The position numbers and the translations under genes were made by a program. Below, piece after piece: positions 3,794-63,012 of a stretch of DNA of 64,000 nucleotides. The notes below the pieces were generated by a model, which saw only the letters and a program-made list of their open reading frames with translations, had not been told where the DNA came from and ran no database searches. This stretch comes from Neobacillus sp. YX16. Lineage in GTDB: Bacteria; Bacillota; Bacilli; Bacillales; Cytobacillaceae. The stretch covers positions 5,904,001-5,968,000 of the forward strand of contig NZ_CP126115.1 of assembly GCF_030123505.1 (NCBI RefSeq), given 5' to 3'. The stretch's first letter is position 1, and each line of letters opens with the position of its first letter.

Positions 3794-4450
3794 TCATTGT
3801 TCCGCGATTTTTTGTAGGTTTAATTGCTTTACCATTGACGAAACTAACGTATTTAATGGATTGATAATCGAGATAGAAGTTTCATGCTCCACCTGCTGTG
3901 CCGCCGCTACCATCGATAATTGAGCAACTGACAGGCCGTGGATGCTATCCAGCTGCTTTATGTAATCGCAAACCGCCTTTTGGTACTCCTTATTTTTCCC
4001 ACTCATAATTAATTCAAAGGTATTTTCTATAATCTTAACCTCGATATCCACCGTTTTCTGATGTTTTTTTGCATATTGTTCTAGCCTGGACATCGTTCCA
4101 TGTACCGTGTCAGGGTTCGTAAATAGAATGGTCTGAGGCTGCTGGGTCTTGCAAAGGGCCTCAAAGTACGGCTCATCAATCTTGATGATAGGTATGTTAA
4201 CCTCAATTTGCTTCAGTAATGCAATATAGTTCGTACATGTGATGAGAATGGCATCCACTCCAGATTGAGCAATCCATTCTATTTGATCCTTCACTTTCTT
4301 CTCCGCCTCAGATATTTGGTCGTTTTTCAGCCGATATATTAACCCCGGGTCAACGTAATGACTTAACTCGAGGTCATAAGGTGAAAACGCGCTTTCGATA
4401 TAGTCGATATTGGAATAATGCGCATGCAGGCAGCCAATTTTCTTTTTCAA
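3794..4450 (-). CDS. Asp/Glu/hydantoin racemase-superfamily protein
   Basis: 218 residues from TTG 4450, which has GGGGGAG at good spacing; the nearby ATG is in another frame. The N-terminus GCLHAHYSNIDYI and the central ITCTNYIALL (Cys near residue 72) match the two-domain Asp/Glu racemase fold. The second catalytic Cys normally expected in the C-terminal half is not obvious; the equivalent stretch reads VAQLSMVAA, with Ser or Met there. It may therefore be a non-racemase relative such as a decarboxylase or isomerase. The substrate is not evident from context. The upstream side is filled by the 52-bp array. Confidence 0.7.
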   Translation of the reverse strand: MKKKIGCLHAHYSNIDYIESAFSPYDLELSHYVDPGLIYRLKNDQISEAEKKVKDQIEWIAQSGVDAILITCTNYIALLKQIEVNIPIIKIDEPYFEALCKTQQPQTILFTNPDTVHGTMSRLEQYAKKHQKTVDIEVKIIENTFELIMSGKNKEYQKAVCDYIKQLDSIHGLSVAQLSMVAAAQQVEHETSISIINPLNTLVSSMVKQLNLQKIAEQ

Positions 4451-4480
4451 ACATTTCTCCCCCTTTTCAAAACCCCATTA

Positions 4481-4844
4481 TTAAGGACTAATCCTTCTAT
4501 TAGCTCGACCGATTTGTCCTCAAGAGCCCGGATTAAGGACTAATCTTTCTAGTAGCTCGTACCATTTGTCCTCAAGATCCTGGATTAAGGACTAATCCTT
4601 CTAGTAGCTCGACCGATTTGTCCCCAAAAGCCTGGATTAAGGACTAATCTTTCTTGCCGCTCGTGCCATTTGTCCTCAAGACCCCGGATTAAGGACTAAT
4701 CTTTCCGGCCGCTCGTGCCATTTGTCCTCAAGACCCCGGATTAAGGACTAATCCTTCTGGCCGCTCGTGCCATTTGTCCTCAAGACCCCGGATTAAGGAC
4801 TAATCCTTCTAGTAGCTCGTGCCATTTGTCCTCAAGAACCAGAT
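4481..4844. repeat. Seven-copy exact 52-bp tandem array
   Basis: Units start at 4481, 4533, 4585, 4637, 4689, 4741 and 4793, always 52 bp apart. Each begins TTAAGGACTAATCCTT (itself a small palindrome, AAGGA/TCCTT) and later carries GCTCGTGCCATTTGTCCTC. Divergence is confined to a few positions, mostly in the AGTAGCTC/GGCCGCTC stretch. On the opposite strand each unit reads GGCACGAGCTACTAG, resembling GGCACGTAAACTACTAA of the array at 1653. No coding potential, transposase or CRISPR organisation. Confidence 0.9.
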
Positions 4845-4986
4845 TCTTATTTTTGATAAGTGGTCTCATGAACCAACACCGAGTCAAAGTTCCATATAGA
4901 TAGGCCTCATGACCCATTTATTCAGACAGGTACATAATTTACTACCTTAAATGCCATGATAACAGAACACCAAAGGGGGATTTTAC

Positions 4987-18154: not shown

Positions 18155-18336
18155 AAATAAACCTCCATCTAACCAAACAATCCTTTTTTGTACAATATTC
18201 CCTAATTTTTCTAACAATATGTAAATAAAAAAGCCAACTGCTTTATACAGTGTTAAATATGTACTAGGGTGTTCTTTCTTTTTCAACTAAACTGCTTCGT
18301 TAGCACAATAAGAAAAGCTGCATCGAAAGCAGTTGG

Positions 18337-18385
18337 TTCTTCAATATAAGCACCCTTTACTTTAAGTACAATCCTTCACAAAGTT
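18337..18385. repeat. Copy of the dispersed CACCCGTTAGTTTAAGTACA repeat
   Basis: Reads TTCTTCAATATAAGCACCC then TTTACTTTAAGTACAATCC and TTCACAAAG. It sits between the stop codon of the DUF1835 gene and the DUF3231 start region, next to a GCTGC/GCAGTT hairpin. Confidence 0.75.
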
Positions 18386-19564: not shown

Positions 19565-19828
19565 TCCTATTATCTCTCCTTTTATTTCTATTAACGATGG
19601 TAATAATCAGCCAATATAAATTTCATTTCCTTTTCCTGTTAATATGAGTACGGTCGATTATACAAAAGGTTTCGATATAAATTCTTATATCGCTAACCTG
19701 CAATTAAATCAGTATTGTCAAACGGATCTAAATGACAAATTTATGAATCTGGCGAAAAACTCTTTTCAATTTCAGTTTTAATTGATATTATTCCTATTAG
19801 AACAGTAGGAATAGTGGGTGTATTAAAA

Positions 19829-20041
19829 ATGTCTTTGTATGAAAAATTACCAAGTGATTTTTTGATTCAATATTATTATGAAGTGAAGAAAATGATTTCA
19901 AAGGGATTAGTTTCTAAAAATATGTATTATGAATTAGGACTAATAATTGCAGCTGCTTCAAGAAGAGGGATACTATTGGATAAGCCAAAGGATTTTAAAC
20001 AACACACTGTCCACGAATTATTAATGGAATTAAGTAACTAG
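19829..20041 (+). CDS. Small conserved 71-residue protein, paralogue of 44497
   Basis: The start is ATG 19829 (MSLYEKLPSDFLIQ). Comparison with the second copy decides this: the two leaders differ by one base just upstream, which would break any longer common frame. The protein is largely helical (YYEVKKMISKGLVSKNMYYE, then LGLIIAAASRRG) with an acidic tail. Family and function not recognised. It has its own terminator. Confidence 0.75.
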   Translation: MSLYEKLPSDFLIQYYYEVKKMISKGLVSKNMYYELGLIIAAASRRGILLDKPKDFKQHTVHELLMELSN

Positions 20042-20101
20042 AATTCCGCCGTGATTGAATAAATAGTTCATCGTAAAGGTCTTCCATTAAACAACCAAAA
20101 A

Positions 20102-20125
20102 AGCCACTGATAAAAATCAGTGGCT
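20102..20125 (+). terminator. Terminator of the 71-residue gene
   Basis: GCCACTGAT / ATCAGTGGC around TAAA, followed by a T-containing stretch; identical in the duplicate at 44771-44793. Confidence 0.85.
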
Positions 20126-20149
20126 TACTTCAACTAAAGCACCCGTTCG

Positions 20150-20394
20150 TAATATAAGGTTAGCCAGATTTTTCTGGTTGACCTTTTTTCATATGGTCTT
20201 ATGATTACGGTAGTCGGGGTAGAACGTCGCACCCGTGGGATTCAATCCCGTTAGCTAAACTGTTCACCCCCTACTTGTATAAACATGTTTCAGGCTGGTT
20301 GGGACATAGATCCCGTTTAACAAGCGAACCTATGACATTACAAGAAGCCTTAGGGGATACCGACTAATATTGCATTTCAGGGAGGAGATAAAGT
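20150..20394 (+). ncRNA. Candidate bridge RNA region of the IS110 element
   Basis: Non-coding leader with two clear hairpins: GGTTAGCCAG/CTGGTTGACC (20158-20183) and GGGATTCAATCCC (20237-20249). The second is flanked on the left by GCACCCGT, identical to the left half of the target repeat, and on the right by GTTAGCTAAACTG, which contains TAAACT, complementary to AGTTTA of the right half. IS110 elements are known to encode a bridge RNA here whose loop pairs with target and donor. The RNA itself is inferred. Confidence 0.5.
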
Positions 20395-21597
20395 ATGAAT
20401 CCAGTCATTGGTCTGGATGTATCAAAAGGGGAAAGTCAGGTACAAGCTTTTTTAGATAAAGGTAAGCCATACCGTAAGAGCTTTAGTATTAATCATGATC
20501 TTGAGGGTTTGGGGAATTTATTAGATTTCCTTCAAGAAGTTGAGAAATCAGCAGGTGGTCATCAACCTTCGGTCGTTTTAGAATCAACTGGGCACTATCA
20601 TATTCCCGTTATTCAGTTTTTAGAGGAACAAAAATATGTTTATATTATCGTCAATCCTCTTATCTCACACAGAGCCAAGAGCTCAAGCCTAAGAAAGGTA
20701 AAAACAGATGCAATCGATGCTTATCACCTTTGTGAATTGTATTATAAAGAAGAATTAGAGCCTTACAAGAAGCGTGGAGTTCAACTCTTAAACCTTCGTA
20801 ATCTAACAAGACAACAAGAGAGTATTGCAGAAATATCAGCGAAAACAAAGTTACAGCTTCATTCTTTAATCGATCAGGTATTTCCAGAGTATCGAGGTGT
20901 ATTTGGAAGCCTATATTCGAAAGTATCATTGCTTACTTTACTAGAGTTCCCTACTTCTAAGGCTGTATTAAGTGTGAGTGAAAAAGAGTTAACGGATACA
21001 ATAGCTTCATTATGTATGAGTCGTTCGGAGTCATGGGCAAAGGAAAAAGCACAGAAGTTAAGAGAAGCAGCCCTTCGTGATCCTTTTCAAAACAATCTCT
21101 ATGATAGTCATATTTTCAACCTTGAAATTTTGGTTAAGATTGTTCTTCAATACCAAGAGCATCTATCCAATATTGCGGATGAAATAGATGCCCTCGCTAG
21201 CGAAATTGAAGAATATGAAATCCTTCAATCTATCCCTGGAATCGGAGAAAAAATCGCTGCAACGATTATTTCTGAAATCGGAGAGATAGATCGGTTTAAT
21301 GGTGCCAAGAGGTTGGTTGCATTCGCTGGAATAGATCCTAGTGTGTACTCTTCAGGAAAGTTTACTGCATCGGTAAACCGAATAACCAAACGTGGCTCGT
21401 GTAGGCTTCGCCACGCCTTGTATATGGCTGTTCAAAGTGGTATTCGGGATTCCCGTAAAAAGAAAACGACTGATGAGATTATTCCACGCAATAGAAGACT
21501 ACGAGAGTTTTACGATAAGAAACGAGAAGAAGGAAAACCCTTTAGAGTAGCGATCATTGCCTGTACAAATAAGCTCTTTTTCCAAGATATAGCTTAA
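20395..21597 (+). CDS. IS110-family transposase (DEDD recombinase)
   Basis: 400 residues; AGGGAGGAG seven bases before ATG. The N-terminal DEDD RuvC-like domain begins MNPVIGLDVSKGESQ and includes LESTGHYH and KTDAIDAYHLCEL. The C-terminal transposase_20 domain has LQSIPGIGEKIAATIISEIG, LVAFAGIDPS and the serine-bearing ITKRGSCRLRHALYMA. The frame is intact, so the element may be active. A hairpin AACCTTCC/GGAAGGTT follows at 21624-21652. Confidence 0.95.
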   Translation: MNPVIGLDVSKGESQVQAFLDKGKPYRKSFSINHDLEGLGNLLDFLQEVEKSAGGHQPSVVLESTGHYHIPVIQFLEEQKYVYIIVNPLISHRAKSSSLRKVKTDAIDAYHLCELYYKEELEPYKKRGVQLLNLRNLTRQQESIAEISAKTKLQLHSLIDQVFPEYRGVFGSLYSKVSLLTLLEFPTSKAVLSVSEKELTDTIASLCMSRSESWAKEKAQKLREAALRDPFQNNLYDSHIFNLEILVKIVLQYQEHLSNIADEIDALASEIEEYEILQSIPGIGEKIAATIISEIGEIDRFNGAKRLVAFAGIDPSVYSSGKFTASVNRITKRGSCRLRHALYMAVQSGIRDSRKKKTTDEIIPRNRRLREFYDKKREEGKPFRVAIIACTNKLFFQDIA

Positions 21598-21623
21598 AAT
21601 CTATATCTAACTAAATACAACAA

Positions 21624-21652
21624 AACCTTCCAAAAAGAGCATAACGGAAGGT
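21624..21652 (+). terminator. Hairpin after the IS110 transposase
   Basis: AACCTTCC / GGAAGGTT around a 13-base loop, 25 bases after the transposase stop and inside the IS right end. The T run is weak. Confidence 0.5.
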
Positions 21653-21730
21653 TATTTGGCATGAATATTTTTAGTATAACATGAGGTTATTAAACTTTTA
21701 ATTGAAAAATGTTGACAAACTATTAGCTGG

Positions 21731-21977
21731 TTTACTTTAAGTACATATTTCCAAAAAATACCCGTTATTATGGCGTTTATCTGGTAAACCACCAAATTAT
21801 AAACAAGGAAACTGCTATTATTGCACTTCCTTAAACCATTGTCAAAAACTCACTAAATTTTATTAAAGCACCACAGAAGCACATACTAAGACTTTATAAT
21901 ACGTGTATATGGTGACTGAATGATAAGCCTGTTCACTGTTGCAATTGAGAATTGTGTGAGTAGATTTATTTATCTTT
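21731..21977. other. AT-rich spacer between the IS110 right end and the beta-lactamase gene
   Basis: It begins with the right half of the dispersed repeat (TTTACTTTAAGTACA). The rest is about 220 bases of unremarkable sequence with no hairpin or reading frame I can support. Confidence 0.5.
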
Positions 21978-22910
21978 TCACTTTAGAACGTTCAGTGCAA
22001 CCTTGGCAGCTTCTGCGACAAGCGCATTGTCATAGGCGGCATTCTGTGTAGATCTGCTGGATAGGACTGCGATGACAATGGGAGCTCTATTCGGCGGCCA
22101 CACAATCGCAATGTCATTCCGCGTTCCATAGCTTCCTGCCCCACTCTTATCATCTACTTCCCAACCTGTTGGTGCGCCAGCACGGATCAATGCATCTCCA
22201 GTGGTATTTCCCCGCATCCAATCTGTCAGGATCTTACGTTTTTCAGTAGGGAGAAAGTCGCTGACTGCGAAAGCCTGGAGGCTCGTAGCAAGTGATTTTG
22301 GTGTGCTTGTGTCACGCTTATCTCCAGGAACAGCTGAGTTCAAATCCGGCTCGTAGCGATCAACCTGAGTAACGTTATCGCCAATCTGCCTCAGTGTTGT
22401 TTCAAATCCCTCAGGGCCTCCCAGTTTCTCTAATAAAAGGTTCCCAGCGGTGTTGTCGCTATATCTGACAGCAGCCTCGATAACTTCCCAAAGAGTCATC
22501 CCGGTATCTACGTGAAGCTCTGTCACGGGTGAATACGAAACTATGTCCTCGCTCTTATATGTGACTAACTCGTCGAGTTGATCAATTGAGTAATGCTGCA
22601 GTAATGCACCTGCGGCTAGAGCTTTGTAAGTAGATGCGTAAGCGAAACGCTCATTTGGCCGATAGGAGACGGTCCGATTTGTACTTGTATCGATAGCGTA
22701 GACTCCGAGCCTGGCGTCAAATTTGCTCTCGAGTTCTGCAAACTCACGGTGAATATGGGGTGCAGGTGTTTTCGTGACTACCTTTTCGGGTTTGTCAGAA
22801 AGGTTTTTAGTGTTCATCGACCAGCCGGCGAGGGGTACAATTGCAACCACTAGCGCAAGCAGGGCATTTATAAAATTATTCATACTGAAAATATCATGTG
22901 TTTTCCTCAA
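21978..22910 (-). CDS. bla: Class A beta-lactamase
   Basis: 310 residues from TTG 22910, which has AGAGG eight bases upstream; the later ATG (MNNFINALL) lacks a site. A hydrophobic export signal covers about residues 10-32. Catalytic motifs are complete: STYK (S70xxK), YSDN (S130DN), EPDLN (E166) and DKSGAG (K234SG, with Ser instead of Thr). It hydrolyses penicillins outside the membrane. Its base composition is clearly richer in GC than its neighbours, suggesting acquisition. It lies at the distal end of a BlaI-BlaR1-PBP run, but the nearest BlaI-type operator is about 285 bases upstream of the start. Confidence 0.95.
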
Positions 22911-23193
22911 GATCTTAACCTCTTTCTATTAATAATAGGTGTTAATAATAATAAGCGGGTTTAATCATAATGTTTTGATTAACACCGTCGGCTATTAACC
23001 AGCAAATTCTAAGAATTGTGTATTACTTTCGGATTCAATTCCATTCGTTATGCAACGAAAAATTTATTCCGCTTGCAGCTTATTTAATCATTTTCAAAAT
23101 CATTTTTATAACCTTACGGTGCCCCGAAATGCTAGGGGAGAATTTCCTCCTTTCTCCAATTTGATTACATGCGAAATAGTAGATTACGCATGT
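22911..23193 (-). other. Long leader between the BlaI operators and the beta-lactamase gene
   Basis: About 280 bases. Reading leftward from the operators there is GGAGAAAGGAGG (a strong ribosome binding site with no start codon behind it), then AAGG plus ATG opening a seven-codon frame MILKMIK and a stop. These may be remains of an older operator-controlled gene start. Nothing else is recognised. Confidence 0.4.
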
Positions 23194-23229
23194 AATACTA
23201 CATATGTAGTATTTACTATACATGTAATA
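23194..23229. promoter_or_regulatory. BlaI operator(s), beta-lactamase side
   Basis: AATACTACATATGTAGTATT (23194-23213) is a perfect palindrome of the BlaI/MecI type. A second degenerate copy, TACTATACATGTAATA, follows directly. Together they could bind two BlaI dimers between the PBP stop and the beta-lactamase gene. Confidence 0.8.
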
Positions 23230-23257
23230 CTACACTCGTAATAAAAAGATGTCAATA

Positions 23258-25306
23258 TCATCTTGTAGTTTGCTGCCCTTTTTCATTAAGGTCAAAATAT
23301 GCCCTAAAAACCCGCTGGCTGATGATATTAGCTGCACTGTGCGGCTGAGCATAACCATCTCGGTAGGCATTGGGTACAATAACGGCTATGGCAATCTCGG
23401 GATCATTGAATGGAGCATATCCAGCAAAAGAAAGATTCCAAGTCTTCACACCATTTTTATAGGATTCCGAGGTCCCGGTTTTACCCGCGGCATTGTACGG
23501 TTCGTCTTTAAAATATCCTCTTGCTGTTCCTTTAGAACCATGGGTAACAAGCCAAAAACCTTGTTGAACCCGCTTAATCATCTCCTCACTCATATCCACC
23601 TGATTCAGCACCACTGGTTCGATTTCATCGACCACGTTACCCGGTTCATTGCCATTCTGATTGGGTTCACGAATCTCCTTCACCAATTGAGGCTTCATCC
23701 GGTATCCTCCATTGGCAATCGTTGTAATATACTGGGCAATTTGCATCGGTGTATAGGTATCTAATTGTCCGATGGCAATTTGAAAGTAGGTACTTGTATT
23801 GGCTCCTTTAATTCCCGCCGTTTCATTATCAAAACCAATACCGGTCGGGATGCCTAAACCAAATTGGTTGAAATAATAGCGGATGGTTTCAATTTTTTTC
23901 GGATTGATATTTAATGTGCCATCGGGGACATACTTACCGCCCATAATTTCAATCGCGGTTTTCCACATATAAACGTTTGATGACCGCTCTATTGCCTCTA
24001 ATTCGTTAATTCTGTTCATGACTTCGTAAGAGGAAAAGGTTCCCGATCCCTTAAATCGCATAACCTCATCCAGCTCGATTTCCCCGAAATCCCTGACACC
24101 CGTTTGGTATCCAGTTAATACGGTAGCCCCTTTTACAACGGACCCCTGTTCAAACGCATAAGTGAAGGCTCCCGGTGTAAAATCGGTAAACTTCCGAGAC
24201 TGCCTGTTATACACTTTTCCTGACATCGCCAGAATGCGGCCTGTTTTCGGTTCCATTGCCACAACAAAGGCAGTGTCAAGGGTATCCGTATGCGGCTTTT
24301 GGATTGCACTAACTAACTCTTCCTGCATAATTTTTTCCACTTGGGCTTGGAACTCCATATCAATGGTCAGAACAATATCGTTGCCGCTCTTCCCTTTCGA
24401 TACAGTGTCTGTACTCACCACATTTCCATTTTGATCTGTTACCGTTTTTACTTTTTCCTTTTGGCCTTGCAACACGCCATCATAAAGTTCTTCAATATAG
24501 CTTTTCCCGACCCGGTCATTCAGGTTGTACCCTCTAGCTGTATAGTAATCTACCTTTTCAGCAGGTAGGCCTTCATCTTCACTCGTTACTTCCCCAAGCA
24601 TATTCCAAAACGTTTCCCCATAGGTGTTGCCCCTTTTCCAATCGGTTGTGCCATCCACACCCGGCAGGTTTTCCAGATTTTCATTGACCTTTGCATATTC
24701 TTCCTCTGTTACATTTTCATTTTTGATCATCGTCGGGGTTAAAGCGATGGCGGACGACAGTTTCCGATAAATGGCCGCCAGGTTTTTGTCCATTGCCTGG
24801 AGATCGCTTTCTGTAATGCGGTTCAATTTTAATTGATACAAATCCTTGTCATTCAGCTTTTCCTGTTGGTATAATTTCTCCTCCTTCTTTGTGATTAAAT
24901 CCGTGCCATTGTTATGTACAATCAGCCATATATCCTTCAAATCCCGGTCAGTCACTTTATTAATTTCTTTATCTGTCATGTCCAGAAAGGTATTTAACTT
25001 ATTGGCCAATTCAAGCAATTCGTTTGGCTGCGGATTTTTCGGCGGTGTATAGATAATCGCCTTTTCCGGAATATTGTAGACTACTAACTTATGATTCGTA
25101 TCGTATATTTTCCCACGCGGAACGGAATAGCTGACGGGCGTCACATCTGTCCTCTTTGCCTGAGCCGCAAAGACTTCCCCTTTGATAATTTGAGTGACGC
25201 CCAGGCGGAGAATTAGGATAGAAAAAAGAACAAAGACTATGAAAAAGAGAGCATTCAGTCTCGAGCGGATTATTACTATATTTTCTTTCTGCTTTTTCTT
25301 CTTCAA
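23258..25306 (-). CDS. Class B penicillin-binding protein (transpeptidase), BlaI-controlled
   Basis: 682 residues from TTG 25306 (AAAGGG upstream). One N-terminal membrane helix (about 18-37), a dimerisation domain beginning PRGKIYDTNHK, and a transpeptidase domain with SVVK (SxxK), SSN (SxN) and KTGTSE. It resembles the PbpA/PbpH (PBP2) group of elongation transpeptidases. It sits between blaR1 and bla with a perfect BlaI-type palindrome 45 bases upstream, so expression should be induced by beta-lactams. This is the same logic as mecA in staphylococci. Low affinity for drugs is inferred, not shown. Confidence 0.92.
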   Translation of the reverse strand: MKKKKQKENIVIIRSRLNALFFIVFVLFSILILRLGVTQIIKGEVFAAQAKRTDVTPVSYSVPRGKIYDTNHKLVVYNIPEKAIIYTPPKNPQPNELLELANKLNTFLDMTDKEINKVTDRDLKDIWLIVHNNGTDLITKKEEKLYQQEKLNDKDLYQLKLNRITESDLQAMDKNLAAIYRKLSSAIALTPTMIKNENVTEEEYAKVNENLENLPGVDGTTDWKRGNTYGETFWNMLGEVTSEDEGLPAEKVDYYTARGYNLNDRVGKSYIEELYDGVLQGQKEKVKTVTDQNGNVVSTDTVSKGKSGNDIVLTIDMEFQAQVEKIMQEELVSAIQKPHTDTLDTAFVVAMEPKTGRILAMSGKVYNRQSRKFTDFTPGAFTYAFEQGSVVKGATVLTGYQTGVRDFGEIELDEVMRFKGSGTFSSYEVMNRINELEAIERSSNVYMWKTAIEIMGGKYVPDGTLNINPKKIETIRYYFNQFGLGIPTGIGFDNETAGIKGANTSTYFQIAIGQLDTYTPMQIAQYITTIANGGYRMKPQLVKEIREPNQNGNEPGNVVDEIEPVVLNQVDMSEEMIKRVQQGFWLVTHGSKGTARGYFKDEPYNAAGKTGTSESYKNGVKTWNLSFAGYAPFNDPEIAIAVIVPNAYRDGYAQPHSAANIISQRVFRAYFDLNEKGQQTTR

Positions 25307-25350
25307 AACACATCAGCCCTTTCATACTGGAAGTTTGTAAGGTCGTTATA

Positions 25351-25370
25351 AATACTACAATTGTAGTATT
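25351..25370. promoter_or_regulatory. BlaI operator upstream of the PBP gene
   Basis: AATACTACAATTGTAGTATT is a perfect 20-bp palindrome matching the BlaI/MecI consensus (TACTAC..GTAGTA), located 45 bases before the PBP start and downstream of blaR1. Confidence 0.85.
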
Positions 25371-25421
25371 AAAATCCTAAAAGTCCCAAAAAGGAAGAGT
25401 AATCCTTTCTGGGGTTAATGA

Positions 25422-27218
25422 TTAATATATCTTTTTATGATCCAGAATCTGCTTGGCAATTTCCGCTGCCTTGCTTCCTTGGGCATGCCCATCCTTATTT
25501 TGAATATTTATGGCAAAATAAAAACGATCTTCACCTTTTTCGACAAAGCCAATAAACCAGCCATTTACATTCTTTCCATTAATCATGCCGGTTCCTGTTT
25601 TACCATACAGCCGTCCATTCTTTTGCTCATCTATTAAAATTGCCTTATTTACCGCTTTGATATTTTCCGCTTTAAAACCCCATTGATTTTCTTCTAATTG
25701 GACTAATAATTGAACTTGTTCAATGGGTGATATTTTTAAAGAAGATTCCATCCAGTAACTATCCAAATTCCCTGAAAGATCCTCATTCCCGTATTTTATC
25801 TTGTGAAAATAATCTTGCAGCTGCTTTCTTCCTACCTCACGATCGGTATTCTGGAAATACCAATTCACGGAACGGCCCAAGGCAGTCGCTAAATTTTGAT
25901 TTTGGTTCCATTCTTCATAGGGATAAATTTTCCCATCCCAAACCTGATTATTGTTATTCGTGGAAATCACATTGGATTCCAATGCAAATAAGGCAGAATA
26001 TATTTTATAGGTGCTATTAGGAGAAATTCTCTGTTCACTCATCTCTCGGTTATAAATTTGATATTGATTTTTAGAGGGATCATATAAAACAAAGCTGCCC
26101 TTGTAGCCCTTAAAATAGGAGCTTAGATCTTCATAGACAGCCTTCTTCCCGCTAAACTGATACACATCATCTGGGCTGGCAATAACGGTGGTGATTGGAG
26201 CAAGGAATAGCACAACAATTCCTAAAACTGAGCAGATGACCTTGCTTTTCCATTTCAATAATAGAGAATCACTAGAGAAGTTTGCAATGCGCTGGATTCT
26301 TTGTTTGATTTGTTTTTTTGTCCCCCCTATACCTGGAGCAAACTGTTCAAGGGTACGATCATATTTTTTATCTGCAAACCGAATGATGGTATGCCCATAT
26401 TCGATATGTCCACTCTCATCCAAGAGATTTAAAACGGAGGCATCACAGGCCAATTCCCGATCGATTCGAATCCTTTTTATGGCATACCAGACGACCGGGT
26501 TAAACCAATAAATGATACTAAACATCCACATAATGTAATTCACGACCAGATCTTTGCTTTTATGATGATGCAGCTCGTGCAAAAACACGTACTTTAATTC
26601 ATTTATCGAAAATGCTTCTAGCGTTTTGCTTGGTAAAAAAATATAGGGTTGAAAAATCCCTACCGTGATAGGCGAGGTAATAGAAGAGGTCTCCCGCAGC
26701 CTTACGTTGCTTTTCACCCCAACCAACTCTTTGCACACTTCTAATAGTTCATTTAACTTTTGGTTATGAAGAGCCACAGATGACTTTTTCATTTGATAGA
26801 TTTGGTAGTTTGAATAAACAGCTGCCACCACAAAAAGAACCACTCCAATGACCCAAACCGTAAAAAATGTATGGTAGACGAAATCGGGCGTTGACTTGTT
26901 TACCGATACCGTGAAATCAAGTAATAAATCGCTGTTTGGCTCCTGAAAGGCATCCACTCCATTCATCCCTTTACTCATCGAAGGTGCGTCTCTATGAAAA
27001 AATAGTAAGCTTTTCAAATACTGAGTTCCTTCTACAAAGTGAAAATTATTCCAAGGTAAAATGGTAGCAAGGATTGGAATGCCAAGAAAATACCATATAT
27101 GATATTGTGCTTTCACCGTCATATGATTGTTTAATAGCTTTTTGATTAATAGAATGATGAAAATAAGGAGGGATACCACGATTGTACTAACCAAAATCCG
27201 CATGAGCATGGTATCCAT
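25422..27218 (-). CDS. blaR1: BlaR1 beta-lactam sensor/signal transducer
   Basis: 598 residues. The N-terminal half is a multi-span membrane M56 metallopeptidase domain with the zinc motif HELHHH (about residue 213). The C-terminal extracellular domain is a penicillin sensor with STYK (SxxK) and KTGTGMINGKN. Acylation by a beta-lactam triggers the protease and removes BlaI. The ATG overlaps the blaI stop (TAATG), so the two are translationally coupled. All key residues are present. Confidence 0.96.
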   Translation of the reverse strand: MDTMLMRILVSTIVVSLLIFIILLIKKLLNNHMTVKAQYHIWYFLGIPILATILPWNNFHFVEGTQYLKSLLFFHRDAPSMSKGMNGVDAFQEPNSDLLLDFTVSVNKSTPDFVYHTFFTVWVIGVVLFVVAAVYSNYQIYQMKKSSVALHNQKLNELLEVCKELVGVKSNVRLRETSSITSPITVGIFQPYIFLPSKTLEAFSINELKYVFLHELHHHKSKDLVVNYIMWMFSIIYWFNPVVWYAIKRIRIDRELACDASVLNLLDESGHIEYGHTIIRFADKKYDRTLEQFAPGIGGTKKQIKQRIQRIANFSSDSLLLKWKSKVICSVLGIVVLFLAPITTVIASPDDVYQFSGKKAVYEDLSSYFKGYKGSFVLYDPSKNQYQIYNREMSEQRISPNSTYKIYSALFALESNVISTNNNNQVWDGKIYPYEEWNQNQNLATALGRSVNWYFQNTDREVGRKQLQDYFHKIKYGNEDLSGNLDSYWMESSLKISPIEQVQLLVQLEENQWGFKAENIKAVNKAILIDEQKNGRLYGKTGTGMINGKNVNGWFIGFVEKGEDRFYFAINIQNKDGHAQGSKAAEIAKQILDHKKIY

Positions 27219-27604
27219 TACTTTTTCCCCTTCTTGTCTCTCATGGATAATATTTTCTTTAATTCCGAAATATCTTCATTTGATAACTTATCATTTTCAA
27301 TAAAATTTAATATCATTGAATTTACCGTTCCGCCGAAAAACTGCTGCAGAAAAGATTTACTTTTTTGCTCTACATATTCGTGCTTTTCAACCAGTGAAGT
27401 ATAAACAAACACTCGGCCATCTTTTCTTGCGTGCAAAGCCTTTTTCTTAACTAGACGCGCCAGCATGGTGTGAATGGTATTTGGCTTCCAATCACTCTTA
27501 TTCGATAATTTATCCACTACCTCAGGAGTCGAAATCGGCTCAAAGTTCCATATAACCTGCATCACTTCATATTCTGCTTCTGATATTTGTGGAATCTCCT
27601 TCAT
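27218..27604 (-). CDS. blaI: BlaI/MecI-family repressor
   Basis: 128 residues from ATG 27604 with GGAGGG upstream; a longer frame has no such site. The winged-helix start (IPQISEAEYEVMQVIWNFEP) and the NTIHTMLARLVKKKAL recognition helix are typical, followed by the C-terminal dimerisation helices. It represses the locus until BlaR1 signalling. It lies directly downstream of an operator, so it is self-regulated. Confidence 0.96.
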   Translation of the reverse strand: MKEIPQISEAEYEVMQVIWNFEPISTPEVVDKLSNKSDWKPNTIHTMLARLVKKKALHARKDGRVFVYTSLVEKHEYVEQKSKSFLQQFFGGTVNSMILNFIENDKLSNEDISELKKILSMRDKKGKK

Positions 27605-27617
27605 GATGACCCTCCTA

Positions 27618-27637
27618 CTTTTACAACTGTAGTATTT
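27618..27637. promoter_or_regulatory. BlaI operator upstream of blaI
   Basis: Reading leftward, AATACTACAGTTGTAAAA is an imperfect BlaI palindrome, 14 bases before the blaI start codon and overlapping its promoter. Confidence 0.75.
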
Positions 27638-27801
27638 ATTATAGCAAGATGGTCCAAAAACATAAAGAAATTTTCGTGACCTTAGCTTTTGGTAATTAAT
27701 CCCCCTGTGTTGACGATTTATTCTACTATCATTCACTTCATTTAGATATCACTTATTCGCAGGATTTCATAACCCTTATAATTGGATTTACGGGTAATTG
27801 A

Positions 27802-31096: not shown

Positions 31097-32425
31097 TCAC
31101 AGAATATAGCTAATTTCTTTTCTTAAATCATAAATATTCACTTTGATTCTTGGTGAAGGTAGTGGATATTTATTAAGAAAGAGCCTGAATTTGTCCCAAG
31201 TAAAGGATTTCCTTTGGCTTCTTCTGTTTAGCCATTTGTATAGTAAGCATTCGATTTTCTCTTTAAAGTTGTTAACAGTTTGGGTATTATCTGTGATGCA
31301 ATAATAGTTGTAGTAACCTATTAGTGAGCGTTTAAATCTATCCATAATCATATGAATATCTTTATTCCTATTATTCTTCAGCCATTCTTTAGTTCCTTTT
31401 AGTTTGCCTTGGACTTTCTTCCTGCTCGTTTTCCGCTTTACTCGGAATTTCCCGTGCTTACTTATCCCACAATAGTGAGTAAATCCAAGGAAGTCGAAGG
31501 TACCCGGTTTGCCAATTCCGTCACGTTTTGCATTCTTCTCCGCAAACCGTCCGAAGGGAATTATTTTAGTTTTATCCTCGGCTATTTCTAGGTTAAATTT
31601 CTTTAATCTCGCTTTTAATGAATGAAAGAATTGCTCGGCTTCACTTTTATTCTGAAAACAACAAACAAAATCATCTGCGTATCTTACTATATACGCCTGG
31701 CCTTTACATTGTTTCTTAACCACTTTTTCAAACCATAGATCAAGAACGTAATGGAGATAGACATTGGCTAATATCGGAGATATCACTCCACCTTGCGGTG
31801 TACCATTGTCTGTCTTGTATTTCTTACCTTCCTCCATGTATCCACCTTTAAGAAACCTGCTGATTAGTCTCAGTAGGTTAGTGTCAGTGATTCGGAGTTT
31901 CAAGAATTCCATCATCCATTTGTGGTCAACGTTATCAAAGAAGCCTTTAATATCTACATCTACTACATAGCTTATTGCTCTCTTCTCAATATAATGATTC
32001 AGTATTTTCAGTGCATCGTGGCAGTTTCTATTTGGACGGAACCCAAATGAGCAGTCTAGAAAGTCATTTTCATAGATGGCATTTAGTATTTTCGTAATGC
32101 CTTTTTGAACAATTTTATCTTCTTGTTCCGGTATTCCCAATGGTCTCATCTTGTTTGAGTTGAGCTTTGGGATATACATTCGTCTTACTGGAACAGGACG
32201 ATAACTTTTGCTTTTGAGCCTACTTACTAAGTCCTCTATGTTTTCTTCTAAACTTTCATCGTATTGCTCTTTAGTAGTACCGTTAATCCCAGTTGCCTTC
32301 TTATTGGGTAGTTCAAGATGGCATTGAATTAATGCTTCCTTATCTAAAAGATGTGCAAGAGATGTAAATTTCATTTTAGGATTAGATTTTGCTAATTCTG
32401 CTATCCTTAGTAGTTTTGTTTCCAT
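31097..32425 (-). CDS. ltrA: Group II intron reverse transcriptase/maturase
   Basis: 442 residues. RT blocks are clear: RPLGIPEQEDKIVQKG (block 1-2), VDVDIKGFFDNVDH, GTPQGGVISPILANVYLHYV and the catalytic YADD in IVRYADDFVCCF. A maturase (domain X) region with KRSLIGYYNYY follows. It ends at about 440 residues without the H-N-H endonuclease domain, as in many bacterial introns. It is fully intact and lies inside the intron RNA. Confidence 0.95.
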   Translation of the reverse strand: METKLLRIAELAKSNPKMKFTSLAHLLDKEALIQCHLELPNKKATGINGTTKEQYDESLEENIEDLVSRLKSKSYRPVPVRRMYIPKLNSNKMRPLGIPEQEDKIVQKGITKILNAIYENDFLDCSFGFRPNRNCHDALKILNHYIEKRAISYVVDVDIKGFFDNVDHKWMMEFLKLRITDTNLLRLISRFLKGGYMEEGKKYKTDNGTPQGGVISPILANVYLHYVLDLWFEKVVKKQCKGQAYIVRYADDFVCCFQNKSEAEQFFHSLKARLKKFNLEIAEDKTKIIPFGRFAEKNAKRDGIGKPGTFDFLGFTHYCGISKHGKFRVKRKTSRKKVQGKLKGTKEWLKNNRNKDIHMIMDRFKRSLIGYYNYYCITDNTQTVNNFKEKIECLLYKWLNRRSQRKSFTWDKFRLFLNKYPLPSPRIKVNIYDLRKEISYIL

Positions 32426-32945: not shown

Positions 32946-33127
32946 CGTTACTTTAAGTATAATATTTCACATAAATCTAGTCGTATTCTTCCTGGTCTAC
33001 TTAATATCCTCTAAATCTGAAAAAAAGAGACACATTCCTTATTAGGAAATGCGCCTGATTGCAGAAGATTGTTATTAAGGAAAAGCACCCCGATAGAACA
33101 TTATATAGTTAATAGTTAGTATTAAAG

Positions 33128-34459
33128 CTACTTTACTCTTCTAGCTGCTTGCTGAATAGGATCCCATACACCATTATATGGAGGTGCGTACGCAAGATCT
33201 AAATCAAGCAGCTCATCGGTTGTCATCGAATGGAATATTGCAGTTGCTAGAACATCGATTCGTTTGTCGATCCCATTTTCCCCAATAATTTGCCCACCAA
33301 GAACTTTATATGTTTCTTTATGATAGACAAGTTTCAATTTCATTTTTTTATTATTGGGATAATATCCAGCGATATCTGTTGATGTAATTGTTACAGCACC
33401 ACATGGGATGTTCAGCATTTTTGCCTCTGTTTCTGTTATTCCTGTTCTCCCTAAAGTTAAACCGAAAAATTTTATGATTGAAGTGCCTACAACACCTTTA
33501 AATGTTTTATGTATATTAACGATGTTTAATCCGGCGATTTGACCTTGCTTATTGGCATGTGTTCCCAATGGGACATGATCATCCATTTCTTTTACTCGAT
33601 GATATTGTGTTGCACAATCTCCTGCAGCATAGATATCTTTAATACTTGTTTGCATATACGCATTTACTTGAATAGAACCATTAACACTTGTTTTGATTCC
33701 AGTCCCTTCTAAAAATAAAATATTTGGCTTCACACCTATAGCGACTACTACTAAATCTGTTTCATACTTCCCTTTATCGGTTTTCACATATTCAACATGC
33801 TCACTACCACGGAATGCTTCAACAGATTCACCCATTTTTAACACAATGTTTTGCTTCACTGCTTCTTCATGGATAAGTTCTGCCATTTCTTTATCAAATA
33901 TTTTTGCTAATTGCTCATTTCTTTCAATGATCGTTACCTTCTTGCCGAGCTCCGCAAAACTTTCAGCCATTTCGAGTCCAATGTATCCGCCACCAATAAC
34001 TGTCACATTTTTTATATCTTTCTCAAGATAATCCATGATTGTCTTTGCATCAGGAATTGCCTTTAATGTGAAAACACCTGGAAGTTTAACACCCTCCCAC
34101 TTTGGAATGACCGGGCCTACGCCGGTTGCAATAAGAAGGCGGTCATACGGAAAGCTAAACGTTTCACCATTACTATGGTTTATTCCAATTACCATTTTAT
34201 TTTCCGTGTCTACCTTTTGGACTTCATGATATACTCGTGCATCAATGCCATATTTCACTTTAAAAGTAGACTGTGTACGTGCTATTAACTTATCTGTTGA
34301 CTCAATCTTCCCACTGATCACATAAGGTAGGCCACATTGTCCGTACGAATACACTCCACCCTTTTCTAAAACAGTGATTTCATGTCCAGTACTGTTTCGT
34401 ACAATTTGCATTGCAGCACTCATCCCTGCTGCATCTCCACCAATAATAAGTACTTTCAT
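33128..34459 (-). CDS. FAD-dependent CoA-disulfide reductase / NADH oxidase-family protein
   Basis: 443 residues from ATG 34459 with AGGAGG seven bases upstream. FAD motif [16 protein letters not shown] at the N-terminus, redox-active single Cys in [14 protein letters not shown] (about residue 43), second nucleotide motif [17 protein letters not shown], then AAGDCATQ and a C-terminal dimerisation domain. This is the pattern of CoADR and related NADH oxidases that reduce CoA disulfides or polysulfides with NAD(P)H. No rhodanese domain is fused. Monocistronic. Confidence 0.92.
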
Positions 34460-34528
34460 ATTCATCCCTCCTTTCTTTATTTTCCATTTATTACTGATTT
34501 TTAAACATGAAGAAAGATTTATCCCCAT

Positions 34529-34777
34529 ATAGGGGTAGCGTCAGGAAGATTCGGATTTACAACGCTGAGTAATTTGAATATATAAAAGTAGAATTCCTGT
34601 AAAGGAACCGACTTTTAGTATTTTCTTTGTTAAACTAATGCACCAGTTAGCGTACATTCTTCACAAACTCATAATGTTCCATAAAACCGAATTCGCAGCA
34701 GAATAAGGAAAAGCTGATTCATTAAATTTTCACTTCCATGAATATACAGAAACCGAATAAATTGCTTTCAATTTGAA
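34529..34777. repeat. Spacer with a dispersed-repeat copy
   Basis: AACTAATGCACCAGTTAGCG then TACATTCTTCACAAAC at 34632-34668 is a recognisable copy of the CACCCGTTAG repeat. The hairpin-forming part upstream is weak. Confidence 0.6.
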
Positions 34778-36044: not shown

Positions 36045-36585
36045 CTTATTCCATTTACCTTTCCCCTTAATTCAAAAAAAGGGCTGCCGTAAAAGCAGCT
36101 GAATTTTCAAGGAAAACACCCATTATCGTAAAGTTATTGCGATTCAACAGCCGAAGAAAATGTATTAAAGCTGTAATATGCAAAGTTAAAAAATTAATTA
36201 CCGCTAAGTAAAAATAGAAATTCTTGCCCAATCAGAAGAATTCCTTCCAAAATCATCCTGCCCGTTAGTCGAATTAGAAAAGCGATCCTTCGTTATTGAA
36301 GAATCGCCTCTGTTTCCTATGCAGTTGCCTAACCATCGTCATATATGCCCCAGACCAAAAAAGAGACTCCCGTAAAACCTTGGGAGTCCAAACAGTAATC
36401 TATTTAATAGGGGTCAAATAGTGATTCCAATTATATTCCGTTTACGAAATATAAAATAGAGAAAATACTACTAAAATTATCCAATCATTATAGGGAAATT
36501 TGGACTAGGATTCCTATATCAAGAAAGTGAGTAGATCATGAGCATGATTAATTTGAATTTCTATAAAGCGGGAATCGAATGAATT
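36045..36585. other. 540-bp gene-free spacer with three hairpins and a dispersed repeat
   Basis: Hairpins GGGCTGC/GCAGCT (about 36068), GCGATCCTTC/GAAGAATCGC (about 36282-36307) and GACTCCC/GGGAGTC (about 36366-36391) are terminator-like. Partial repeat copies CACCCATTATCGT (36117) and CCTGCCCGTTAGTCGAATTAG (36259) accompany them. I find no reading frame with a ribosome binding site. Confidence 0.5.
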
Positions 36586-37053
36586 TTACTTAACTTTTTT
36601 CTGATCATAGATATCTTCCTGCCATAACTGATAAAGATATAGAATGACGGCTAGTATGGTCATGATCAAAAGATTATTGAGTGGAGAGAAACTACCCGTT
36701 TCTCTTATCTCTAGCTTGTTTAACATTTTCGTAAGACCCACCCCGTAAATGAGATCGATGATTAAATTAACAATAATATATATCCAAAATTTACGAAATG
36801 TAAAATGAAATATCCATATTGTCCCAACTAAAAATATGCTATATACCGTAAATAATGGTGCTATTTTGTCCCAGCTAAATAGAGTCTCTTTAAATTCCCA
36901 CCAGTTATATGTCCAAGCCATTTGTGCCAATATGGTGTTGAGCACTGTGGCAAATAGAGCTACAGGCATATATCTTCGAATTGCTGAATGGTCTAAAAAG
37001 ATCAAAGAAATCCAAGGAATAATAAATATAGACCAAATAACCAATTTAACCAT
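36586..37053 (-). CDS. Multi-pass membrane protein, CBO0543-like size
   Basis: 155 residues; GAGAGG nine bases before ATG. About five hydrophobic helices (residues 3-20, 30-50, 66-84, 88-105, 126-142) and a charged C-terminus (QEDIYDQKKVK). The Trp-rich WTYNWWEFKETLFSW loop and length resemble the CBO0543-type small membrane proteins, but the family call is uncertain. Function unknown. Confidence 0.65.
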   Translation of the reverse strand: MVKLVIWSIFIIPWISLIFLDHSAIRRYMPVALFATVLNTILAQMAWTYNWWEFKETLFSWDKIAPLFTVYSIFLVGTIWIFHFTFRKFWIYIIVNLIIDLIYGVGLTKMLNKLEIRETGSFSPLNNLLIMTILAVILYLYQLWQEDIYDQKKVK

Positions 37054-37318
37054 TTTTTTAGTCCTCTCAGTATGAATTCTATATATAACGTGTCCACTTT
37101 TGCTAAATAAAATGCATCTTGTTTATTCAACTAGCCTGTATCTATAGTTCAAAAAAAGCCAACTAGATTGCAGCCAGATATTTAAGGTAAGCAACCAGTA
37201 GTTTTTCAAATTATTGCTACAAAAGGATTCTTTTGAGAATTGAGGGGATTAAAAGTACAGCTGTCATTACATATAATAGAGAGTTTAATTCATAATGATA
37301 GTAAGGAGGTTTAAATTT

Positions 37319-43620: not shown

Positions 43621-43683
43621 GAATAACTCATAATGGTTTCTTCTCAAGCCTGCTTCGTTAGTTCAATTAATTCTACAAAAAGA

Positions 43684-43709
43684 GCGTTAATCCCTTGCTG
43701 GTTTAACGC
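43684..43709. terminator. Hairpin joined to the dispersed repeat
   Basis: GCGTTAATCC / GGTTTAACGC followed by ACCCATTAGTTG. The same type of hairpin (GCGTTAATCCTTCTTGGATC) occurs at 42804 and 47224. Confidence 0.65.
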
Positions 43710-43776
43710 ACCCATTAGTTGCATAACAAAACTTAATTACTATAATTGAATTTTCCCAAAAAGCATGGCAATAGCA

Positions 43777-44274
43777 TTATTCTTTAAGAATTTGCTTAAT
43801 CGTTTCTTCTACATAAGTAAGAAAATTACTGTATGGGGAGTTTCCTTTCAAGAATTGCGATACCATATTCAAGGGTAGGATAACTATATCCCTTTTTTTA
43901 GAATAAAGAACACTTTGTGTTTGGGTATTACTGTACATTCCATCAAGATTGGGAGAATAATTGTGTACGGAATCGGACTCATACCAGTAAAAGTCTTGCT
44001 TGATATTATTTTTGATAACCTCACCAATATACGCACCTATACGAACTACTAAATTATCAAAATGCTTATTCAATAATTCAGCACCAAACTCCGTATTCAT
44101 TAATCTTTTTGTATATTTATCAATATAACGAACACTTTCAATAGTGAAATCTAAATTTCTTTTAGTGAGGTTCTCTTTATCCCAGGAATCTTCTGATACA
44201 TCCTGATACATTAATTTTGCAATGCCTTTTAAATCATCTTTTTTTTATTTTGCTCTATTTAAGAAACCAAACAT
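43777..44274 (-). pseudogene. Hypothetical protein gene with an in-frame stop near its 5' end
   Basis: The natural start looks like ATG 44274 with AAAGGAG upstream (MFGFLNRAK), but codon 10 is TAA (44245-44247) inside an A-rich run. The frame then continues KKDDLKGIAKLMYQDVSEDS and stays open for 144 more residues from the internal ATG at 44211. The protein is acidic and helical with FYWYESDSVHNYSPNLDG in the middle; no family recognised. Either a recent nonsense mutation (AAA to TAA) or translation from the internal ATG, which lacks a ribosome binding site. Confidence 0.6.
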
Positions 44275-44370
44275 AAGAGAATTTCTCCTTTATCAATTGT
44301 CTCCTAGTGCAGCTACCCTAATTATAACTCTTATTGGATTAACCTGCCCGTTAGTTCACCAAGATTAAAG

Positions 44371-44818
44371 CAGTATTGTCAAACCTATCTGCAATAAAAT
44401 GACAAATTCATGAATCTTACGAAAAACTCTTTTCAATTTCAGTTTTAATTGATATTATTCCTATTAGAACAGTAGGAATAGTGGGTGTTTCCAAAAATGT
44501 CTTTGTATGAAAAATTACCAAGTGATTTTTTAATTCAATTTTATTATGAAGTGAGGAAAATGATTTCAAAAGGATTAGTTTCTAAAAAGATGTACTATGA
44601 ATTAGGACTAATAATTGCAGCTGCGTCAAGAAGAGGGATACTACTGGATATGCCAAAAGATTTTGAACAACACATTGTCCACGAATTATTAATGGAATTA
44701 AGTAACTAGAACTCCGCAGTTATTGAATAAATAGTTCATCGTAAAGGTCTTCCATTAAACAAACAAAAACGCCACTGATAAAAATCAGTGGCTTTCTTCA
44801 ACTAAAGCACCCGTTCGT
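44371..44818. repeat. Duplicated segment, copy 2 (intact repeat, no IS)
   Basis: About 448 bases nearly identical to 19710-20149: same leader, paralogous 71-residue gene, same GCCACTGA terminator and same repeat start. This copy continues straight into GTTTAAGTACAATTTTTTC, showing the site before IS110 insertion. Confidence 0.9.
44497..44709 (+). CDS. Small conserved 71-residue protein, paralogue of 19829
   Basis: Starts at ATG 44497 (MSLYEKLPSDFLIQFYYEVR). It differs from the paralogue at a handful of positions (QYYYEVKK/QFYYEVRK, SKNMYYE/SKKMYYE, LDKPKDFKQH/LDMPKDFEQH), all conservative or surface-type, suggesting both are maintained. Function unknown. Confidence 0.75.
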   Translation: MSLYEKLPSDFLIQFYYEVRKMISKGLVSKKMYYELGLIIAAASRRGILLDMPKDFEQHIVHELLMELSN

Positions 44819-44841
44819 TTAAGTACAATTTTTTCACAAAC
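44794..44841. repeat. Best intact copy of the dispersed intergenic repeat
   Basis: TTCTTCAACTAAAGCACCCG, TTCGTTTAAGTACA and TTTTTTCACAAAC in order, right after the terminator of the 71-residue gene. It serves as the empty-site reference for the IS110 insertion. Confidence 0.85.
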
Positions 44842-62302: not shown

Positions 62303-62405
62303 TTTTCTATATATTAACACTTACAAATCATCAATCTATTTCCCCTATAAACTTTCAATATCAAGATACGGGTTTTAAATTACCTTTTTTATCCAATTAT
62401 TTCTT

Positions 62406-62991: not shown

Positions 62992-63012
62992 CTAACAAAT
63001 CACGGACAAAAA

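What the first reader, a model, noticed from the sequence alone, without database searches (positions are those of the whole stretch)
20102..21752. IS110 element inserted in a genome-dispersed repeat, with the empty site preserved in a duplicated locus
Seen: the left flank (ACTAAAGCACCCGTT) and right flank (TTTACTTTAAGTACA) are halves of the dispersed repeat. A 440-bp segment ending at the left junction is duplicated at 44371-44818, and there the repeat is uninterrupted (CACCCGTTCGTTTAAGTACA). Known: IS110 elements choose targets by a bridge RNA and often hit repeats. Inferred: this IS targets the repeat family, so every copy in the genome is a potential site.
Basis: partly seen in the sequence, partly recalled or inferred. 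Interest (0 to 1): 0.72.

Follow-up and report, generated by a model that had tools for sequence, protein, structure and literature searches.

The report
IS110 parasite of shuffling gene array
A jumping element steered by its own guide RNA sits in one of many short repeated joints between small swappable gene units on a soil-type Bacillus relative's chromosome, and those joints look like the recombination sites of a gene-cassette system with its own recombinase.

Summary
The IS110 element is real and open (20148-21733). All ten full-length matches found in this genome end in the same repeat (40 of 58 candidates scored). Upstream of the transposase lies a predicted bridge RNA whose target guide matches the repeat; across relatives guide and target change together.

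The "empty site" is not a pre-insertion allele. The duplicated 440-bp segment is itself a unit bounded by two versions of the repeat (box B, box A); right of the repeat the two loci share nothing.

The repeat is the larger finding. 131 boxes lie in 463 kb of chosen stretches, 6 in 395 kb elsewhere; 126 of 131 are co-oriented with the replichore. Segments between boxes recur at unrelated places in other genomes: 27 of 59 edges have a box, against 0 of 84 and 2 of 180 control windows. A Xer-like tyrosine recombinase, often framed by boxes, sits in the arrays and co-occurs with boxes across the order. Seven of seven copies of one group II intron end abut a box.

Best reading: an integron-like cassette system, not an integron by the tests done, parasitised by IS110 and group II introns. 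No activity was tested; the recombinase's role is inferred.

The parts
20148..21733 (+). Complete IS110 element (1586 bp counting the right-hand core TT)
   Evidence: Ends defined by ten own-genome matches and relatives' junctions
20395..21597 (+). IS110 RNA-guided recombinase, 400 aa
   Evidence: PF01548 1.6e-30, PF02371 2.9e-24; NF033542 243 bits, cutoff 140
20148..20394 (+). Left non-coding end carrying the predicted bridge RNA
   Evidence: 19-sequence alignment and consensus fold, 9 of 50 pairs with a change on both sides in at least one sequence; single-sequence fold no better than shuffles (z 0.32)
20229..20236 (+). Left target guide GCACCCGT, identical to the left target
20253..20258 (+). 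Right target guide AGCTAA, pairs with TTAG(C/T)T; one mismatch and one G-U with this copy's TTACTT
20294..20300 (+). Left donor guide GCTGGTT, identical to the IS right end
   Evidence: Sequence
20324..20328 (+). Right donor guide GCGAA, pairs with TTCGT at the IS left end (one G-U)
   Evidence: Sequence
20128..20147 (+). Left half of the interrupted box A (core TT 20146-20147)
   Evidence: Junction comparison; profile hit alone is weak (E 0.15)
21734..21746 (+). Right half of the interrupted box A
   Evidence: Junction comparison; profile hit alone is not significant (E 3.7)
19690..20147 (+). Box-B-to-box-A unit left of the IS (ORF 19829-20041, terminator-like hairpin); left box B degenerate
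44332..44828 (+). Second copy of that unit, box B at 44350, box A core at 44814
   Evidence: recurs in other genomes with unrelated flanks (L159, L161, L266)
18279..18371 (+). Composite site: box B, hairpin, box A, cores 58 bp apart
43637..43720 (+). Composite site: box B, hairpin, box A, cores 58 bp apart
43716..44350 (-). Mobile gene unit (144-aa ORF) between box A 43715 and box B 44350; in L162 it runs on into a different B-A unit, at G000 2.986 Mb into the recombinase unit
36264..37143 (-). Gene unit whose left edge in a same-species genome falls exactly at CCCG|TTAG; its right edge there is 23 bp short of the box
   Evidence: (L232)
32948..34647 (-). Gene unit (Pyr_redox oxidoreductase) with edges at boxes, 98% identical in same-species genome G233 (its left edge there is at a contig end)
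   Evidence: L233
30994..32938 (-). Group II intron with reverse transcriptase (31097-32425), 5' end against a box; both ends approximate
   Evidence: Rfam RF00029 and RF02005, PF00078
56866..56999 (+). Remnant of an IS110 left end (117 bp at 93%) in a box, rest of the element absent
   Evidence: L011
43441..43564 (+). Second IS110 left-end remnant, 75% identical
   Evidence: L014

Best explanation
The repeat is the recombination site of a gene-cassette system. Two site versions, box A (..AACTAAAGCACCCG-TT-AGTTTAAG..) and box B (..AACTAACCTGCCCCG-TT-AGTTCAATAAG..), each a short dyad with an asymmetric centre, stand in direct orientation between small accessory genes. A Xer-like tyrosine recombinase, encoded in the arrays and often itself framed by boxes, most likely exchanges DNA inside the centre of two boxes and so excises, inserts and shuffles the units (inferred). 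The IS110 element exploits the system: its bridge RNA pairs one loop with the box centre and one arm, the other loop with the joined IS ends, and its DEDD recombinase inserts the IS at the TT core. Different IS copies carry different guides and so choose box A, box B, or the opposite strand of box A. Shown by sequence: ends, guides, guide-target covariation, box clusters, units in unrelated contexts with edges at boxes, recombinase beside boxes. Inferred: chemistry, direction, activity today, that this recombinase does the shuffling.
For: IS: ten of ten full-length own-genome matches at boxes. Left guide matches the flank 8/8 in 32 and 7/8 in 20 of 72 loci (73 of 90 loci gave a loop, 17 did not). 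For 34 distinct pairs the mean match is 5.59 of 8, above all 5000 shuffles (highest 5.41). Right guide, 27 distinct pairs: 3.04 of 4 against 2.67, reached by 9 of 5000 shuffles. Own-genome copy L008, guide CTGCTCGT, sits in a box-B-type CTGCTCCGTT. Array: 131 boxes at profile score 12 or more in 463 kb, 6 in the reversed sequences, 6 in 395 kb of 20 stretches elsewhere; 126 of 131 co-oriented with the replichore, 89 of the 94 not used as training seeds. 27 of 59 edges of units shared with other genomes have a box in the relative, 12 of 59 in both, against 0 of 84 interior and 2 of 180 non-array windows. Edges at or inside the box in a same-species genome: L232, L233, L238, L262, L266, L267. 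One gene unit continues after box B into three different B-to-A units. Recombinase: 41 of 199 order-level genomes at E 1e-60. Box A pattern in 37 of these 41 against 69 of 158 others (Fisher p 4e-8, kinship not corrected; reversed-pattern control in 10 of 199). A box upstream or downstream of the gene (p 0.05 on either side) in 15 of 19 subfamily-1 loci, 12 of them at score 15 or more; also on a Sporosarcina plasmid with an IS110 at a nearby box. Group II intron end: 7 of 7 copies against a box.
Against: No excision, circle or strand exchange was observed. 69 of 158 genomes without a close recombinase relative still hold at least one box-like match, so arrays exist without it or another enzyme serves. 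4 of 19 subfamily-1 recombinase loci show no box on either side; in subfamily 2, 8 of 12 pass p 0.05 on one side, but with low scores (-1.3 to 6.4), which I do not count. 32 of 59 unit edges lack a detectable box in the relative; many of these hits look like gene-only homology. Many of the recombinase copies listed are short or have stops inside. The fixed composite with cores 49-62 bp apart (22 of 35 B-A pairs) is unexplained. Low guide matches (20 of 72 loci at 6/8 or less) are mostly box B, where the target has one extra base; that reading of them is mine. One locus (L053, guide GCGCCCGT) has another IS end instead of a box at its left flank.
Confidence: 0.68

Rival explanations
1. Ordinary case: an IS110 that targets a dispersed palindromic, terminator-linked repeat (REP- or MITE-like); variation around the repeats is ordinary accessory-gene turnover.
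For: IS110 targeting of REP elements is established (PMC11208160, passages). Boxes often flank terminator-like hairpins.
Against: Edges of shared units fall at boxes far above controls, several inside the ~8-bp centre. Boxes are clustered and co-oriented. A recombinase family stands beside boxes in several genera.
Confidence: 0.17
2. The mobile thing is only the box-B-to-box-A element: a recombinase-bearing insertion element with short non-autonomous copies (hairpin units, the 440-bp unit). The genes between are just chromosomal DNA between insertions.
For: The recombinase (in several loci) and the 440-bp ORF are both B-to-A units; 22 of 35 B-A pairs are a near-uniform minimal form with cores 49-62 bp apart.
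Against: A-to-B gene units also recur with unrelated flanks and edges at boxes on both sides (L154; L233, left edge at a contig end).
Confidence: 0.2
3. Box-to-box exchange is a by-product of the IS110 recombinase acting in trans, or of homologous recombination between boxes.
For: IS110 guides match boxes.
Against: The bridge RNA pairs one loop with IS ends, which are absent from box-box junctions. Boxes share only about 30 bp, short for homologous recombination (general knowledge).
Confidence: 0.08

Closest known systems
IS110 group elements with bridge RNA (IS621); IS1111/IS110 seekRNA elements, incl. IS1111-attC
   Same: DEDD plus Transposase_20 protein, long non-coding end upstream of the gene, two guide loops, insertion into repeats; IS1111 members ISKpn4 and ISPst6 target attC sites of integron cassettes (PMC11187229, passages)
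   Different: Target is not REP or attC but the two boxes of a Bacillaceae array; core TT or AT at the left junction, whereas the IS621 analysis used CT-core guides (PMC11208160, passages); guides differ between copies to address box A, box B or the reverse strand
Integrons (sedentary chromosomal)
   Same: Arrays of small, independently shared accessory genes in mostly one orientation; tyrosine recombinase gene next to a site; sites parasitised by ISs and group II introns
   Different: Recombinase scores far below the integron-integrase cutoff (80-98 against 265 bits). Sites are short dyads that do not fold as attC. IntegronFinder 2.0 reports one complete integron in Firmicutes (Limnochorda) and a few attC clusters without integrase (PMC9024848, passages)
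dif (pdif) modules of Acinetobacter plasmids
   Same: Genes between short Xer-type sites shuffle; ISs of another family target the sites (PMC10132070, abstract start in listing)
   Different: Here the sites are co-oriented, found on the chromosome as well as on plasmids, and come with a recombinase of their own rather than XerC/XerD (dif side recalled)
XerA/XerD-type tyrosine recombinases
   Same: Best family matches; catalytic domain PF00589
   Different: Below the XerA (220), XerC (335) and XerD (330) cutoffs; multicopy and accessory

Membership tests
IS110 family, IS110 group | DEDD N-terminal and Transposase_20 C-terminal domains | tested here: met
   NF033542 above cutoff
IS110 family, IS110 group | Long non-coding end upstream of the gene | tested here: met
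   247 bp upstream against 136 bp downstream
IS110 family, IS110 group | RNA loops matching target and donor | tested here: met
   Sequence matches and covariation; the RNA itself was not observed and the single sequence folds no better than shuffles
IS110 family, IS110 group | Insertion without target-site duplication, shown against a true empty allele | tested here: inconclusive
   No allelic empty site found; 44814 is not one
IS110 family, IS110 group | Circular double-stranded intermediate | not testable with these tools
   Needs cells or reads
Integron | IntI-type integrase | tested here: not met
   TIGR02249 79.6 and 98.1 bits, cutoff 265
Integron | attC sites that fold as long single-strand hairpins | tested here: not met
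   22 composites folded with DNA energies: mean z -0.9 top, -1.4 bottom; no consistent attC-like outer-arm pairing seen (by eye; a few, such as c2.94 30399 and c3.16 33607, pair more extensively)
Integron | Array of mobile single-gene cassettes | tested here: met
   mobility inferred from contexts, not observed
Integron | Integrase-adjacent insertion site (attI) | tested here: inconclusive
   Box A follows the recombinase in several subfamily-1 loci and sequence diverges after it; use as an entry site is untested
dif modules | Neighbouring Xer sites in opposite orientation | tested here: not met
   126 of 131 boxes co-oriented; that dif modules have opposed sites is recalled
REP elements | Scattered intergenic palindromes without exchange at the repeat | tested here: not met
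   Clusters and unit edges at boxes; the definition is recalled

The most novel reading that the evidence does not exclude
Bacillaceae carry a gene-cassette system of their own, independent of integrons: short dyad sites in co-oriented arrays, a dedicated Xer-like recombinase that travels as one of the units and also on plasmids, and a following of parasites (IS110 guided by bridge RNA, group II introns) that have independently converged on the same recombination site.
Probability: 0.6. Interest if true: 0.88.

Novelty: new variant of a known kind. Interest (0 to 1): 0.76.

Why it matters
Integrons are reported as extremely rare in Firmicutes (PMC9024848, passages), so how Bacillaceae assemble variable accessory regions is open. 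A cassette system with its own recombinase and sites would be a testable answer. It would also give natural bridge-RNA elements whose guides have been retuned between two versions of one site, useful for studying how IS110 specificity evolves. Any claim of novelty rests only on the ten literature searches: the titles and abstract starts shown (lists were capped) describe no such arrays in Bacillaceae; most subscription papers are not held.

Tried and rejected
Empty site as a before/after pair: rejected, the right sides do not correspond. Rfam for the bridge RNA: no family matched there. Single-sequence folding of the bridge RNA: no better than shuffles, so weight rests on alignment and covariation. 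attC-like folding of the box B-hairpin-box A composite: not supported. A link to B. cereus bcr repeats: only literature listings looked at, sequences not compared. A same-species genome as a source of a true empty allele: units lie on ten contigs of a 400-contig draft (my count), with contig ends inside IS-like sequence, so IS presence there cannot be read. Phages: only distant recombinase relatives, under 60% identity in 7 of 7 records. Subfamily-2 recombinases: sites beside them look different or reversed, not resolved. No structure prediction was run.

Full report
WHAT WAS ASKED. I checked the element, the repeat, the duplicate and the surroundings.

THE ELEMENT. The window is bases 5904001-5968000 of a 6.23-Mb single-contig chromosome. 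The closest named relatives of the transposase include Neobacillus (up to 95%) but also Mesobacillus and Alkalihalobacillus, so Neobacillus-like is an inference. The IS runs from 20148 to 21733. Its 400-aa protein has both IS110 domains and passes NCBI's IS110 RNA-guided transposase model. One search (40 of 58 candidates scored) found six full-length copies at 96-100% and four at 70-73%, besides fragments. All ten full-length matches have CGTA at the left end and ...TTAGCTGGTTT at the right, with repeat halves outside. Of 157 relatives in named genomes the best 80 were kept; the right-end motif was found in 79 of 80 (up to 2 mismatches) and the left-end motif in 75 of 80 (up to 3 mismatches), a few of the left hits evidently spurious.

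HOW IT CHOOSES ITS SITE. The 247-bp left end holds a predicted bridge RNA. It carries GCACCCGT (identical to the left target), AGCTAA (pairs with the right target TTAGCT/TTAGTT), GCTGGTT (identical to the IS right end) and GCGAA (pairs with the IS left end). A 19-sequence alignment gives a consensus fold with 9 of 50 pairs changed on both sides in at least one sequence; the single sequence alone folds no better than shuffles. Of 90 loci, 73 gave a readable target loop. In 72 with an unmasked flank, the left guide matches the flank at 8 of 8 positions in 32 loci, 7 in 20, and 6 or fewer in 20. Most of the low ones carry a CTGCCCGT-type guide on a CTGCCCCGTT-type target, one base longer. For 34 distinct guide-target pairs the match (5.59 of 8) exceeds all 5000 shuffles; for the right guide 9 of 5000 shuffles reach the observed pairing. 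Shuffles do not correct for kinship. Guides TGGCCCGT (4 of 4 loci), GCGCCCGT (5 of 6; the sixth, L053, lies beside another IS end), GCCTCCGT (1 of 1), GCACCTGT (1 of 1) and GCACCCGT (26 of 34 exact) meet the corresponding target. Own-genome copy L008 (guide CTGCTCGT) sits in a box-B-type site. Copy L010, which gave no readable loop, sits on the opposite strand of a box A, by my reading of its flanks. The left junction keeps the target's core (TT, in some AT); the right keeps the IS's TT.

THE 'EMPTY SITE'. The 440-bp duplicate is real, but homology stops at the repeat on the right, and on the left it starts at another version of the repeat. The same segment recurs in other genomes (L159, L161, L266; right part in L172, L174) with unrelated flanks each time; in the first three it lies between box B and box A. 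It is a unit, not a preserved target locus.

THE REPEAT. Two versions exist. Box A: TTCTTCAACTAAAGCACCCG-TT-AGTTTAAGTACA. Box B: TTCTTCAACTAACCTGCCCCG-TT-AGTTCAATAAGAA. Both are dyads around an asymmetric centre. With up to 2 mismatches, box A occurs 31 times in the genome, 13 forward and 18 reverse, with 3 control matches. By profile score 12, 131 boxes lie in 463 kb (window plus 20 stretches chosen around those hits, IS copies and their surroundings), against 6 in the reversed sequences and 6 in 395 kb of 20 stretches elsewhere. 126 of 131 have the orientation expected from their replichore; of the 94 that were not training seeds, 89 do. The first frame of the contig reads as DnaA by eye, and GC skew changes sign between 3.30 and 3.40 Mb. 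Among 106 neighbouring pairs up to 6 kb apart, 35 are B-A, 35 A-B, 17 A-A and 19 B-B; in 22 of the 35 B-A pairs the cores are 49-62 bp apart around a terminator-like hairpin, while A-B distances are 189-5839 bp.

UNITS MOVE BETWEEN BOXES. Of 59 unit edges in the 29 loci fetched, 27 have a box in the relative within the tested stretch, 28 in the window and 12 in both, against 0 of 84 windows inside units and 2 of 180 windows outside arrays. In a same-species draft genome the window's units lie on ten contigs (my count of matches of 200 bp or more and 84% or more), and edges fall at or in the box in L232, L233, L238, L262, L266 and L267; L233's left edge is at a contig end, and the draft's fragmentation itself adds to the scatter. 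One gene unit (43716-44350) continues after box B into the 440-bp unit here, into the recombinase unit at 2.986 Mb, and into a hairpin unit in L162. Gene content is typical of accessory cassettes: DinB-like, GNAT, NmrA-like, YCII, AHSA1, DUF1697, DUF4279; 4 of 20 window proteins scanned had no Pfam match.

A CANDIDATE RECOMBINASE. Of 14 phage-integrase-domain matches in the genome, four belong to one family located in or by the arrays: two intact (279 and 281 aa), two broken. It is Xer-like, below every equivalog cutoff listed, and far below the integron-integrase cutoff; the nearest solved structure by sequence is XerD, 1a0p. It occurs in 41 of 199 order-level genomes at E 1e-60. In the genus 38 of 60 genomes match at E 1e-40, two of them (G011, G250) only at 38-39% identity, and many copies are short or have stops inside. 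The box A pattern (up to 3 mismatches) occurs in 37 of the 41 and in 69 of the 158 others, mean 4.7 against 0.9 per genome; the reversed pattern occurs in 10 of 199 by my count (kinship not corrected). In 15 of 19 subfamily-1 loci, three of them own-genome, a box stands upstream (11) or downstream (10) of the gene at p 0.05 or better, 12 of them at score 15 or more. Subfamily 2 has 5 of 12 downstream and 3 of 12 upstream, all at low scores. Of 23 plasmid records with relatives, 7 are at 60-80% identity. On a Sporosarcina plasmid the gene (12007-12846 of L230) lies between box B (11925) and box A (12901), with an IS110 transposase gene 2 kb away beside another box A (15 box hits at score 8 in 24.8 kb, 2 in the reversed sequence). 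A Cytobacillus plasmid stretch gave 6 hits against 3 in its reversed sequence.

OTHER PARASITES. One group II intron 5' end (15-base pattern, up to 1 mismatch) occurs seven times in the genome, and seven of seven abut a box. Group IIC introns are reported with integrons (PMC7923331, abstract start in listing) and IS1111 elements at attC sites (PMC11187229, passages). Two IS110 remnants also sit in boxes in this window.

MEMBERSHIP. The IS is a member of the IS110 family, IS110 group. The array works like an integron or a dif-module array but is not filed as either: the integrase test and the attC fold test fail, and the sites are co-oriented. Whether the recombinase acts on boxes is not shown.

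VERDICT. The element alone is a new member of a known kind. The site it targets, read as a joint of a cassette system, is a new variant of a known kind and the reason for the score.

Noticed in passing
window 21978-27736: Beta-lactamase, penicillin-binding-protein-like, BlaR1-type and BlaI-type genes in a row lie between the IS and box A at 27919 (the 682-aa ORF at 23258-25306 was not scanned, its label is by eye); described only.
   Followed up: partly
window 44497-44709 and 19829-20041: The 70-aa ORF of the 440-bp unit has the same box-B-ORF-hairpin-box-A layout and direction as the recombinase; it could be an accessory factor. No Pfam match to the copy at 19829.
   Followed up: partly
window 4428-4895: Seven-fold 52-bp tandem direct repeat, with further tandem families at 1651-1790, 2123-2691 and 62362-63014.
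   Followed up: no
L031, L053: IS110 copies whose left flank contains part of another IS110 end, suggesting tandem or nested insertion.
   Followed up: no
all array loci: 22 of 35 B-A pairs have cores 49-62 bp apart around a hairpin; too short to be an ordinary excisable circle, function unexplained.
   Followed up: partly
L267: In the same-species genome a sequence like the group II intron end stands directly before a box A rather than a box B.
   Followed up: no
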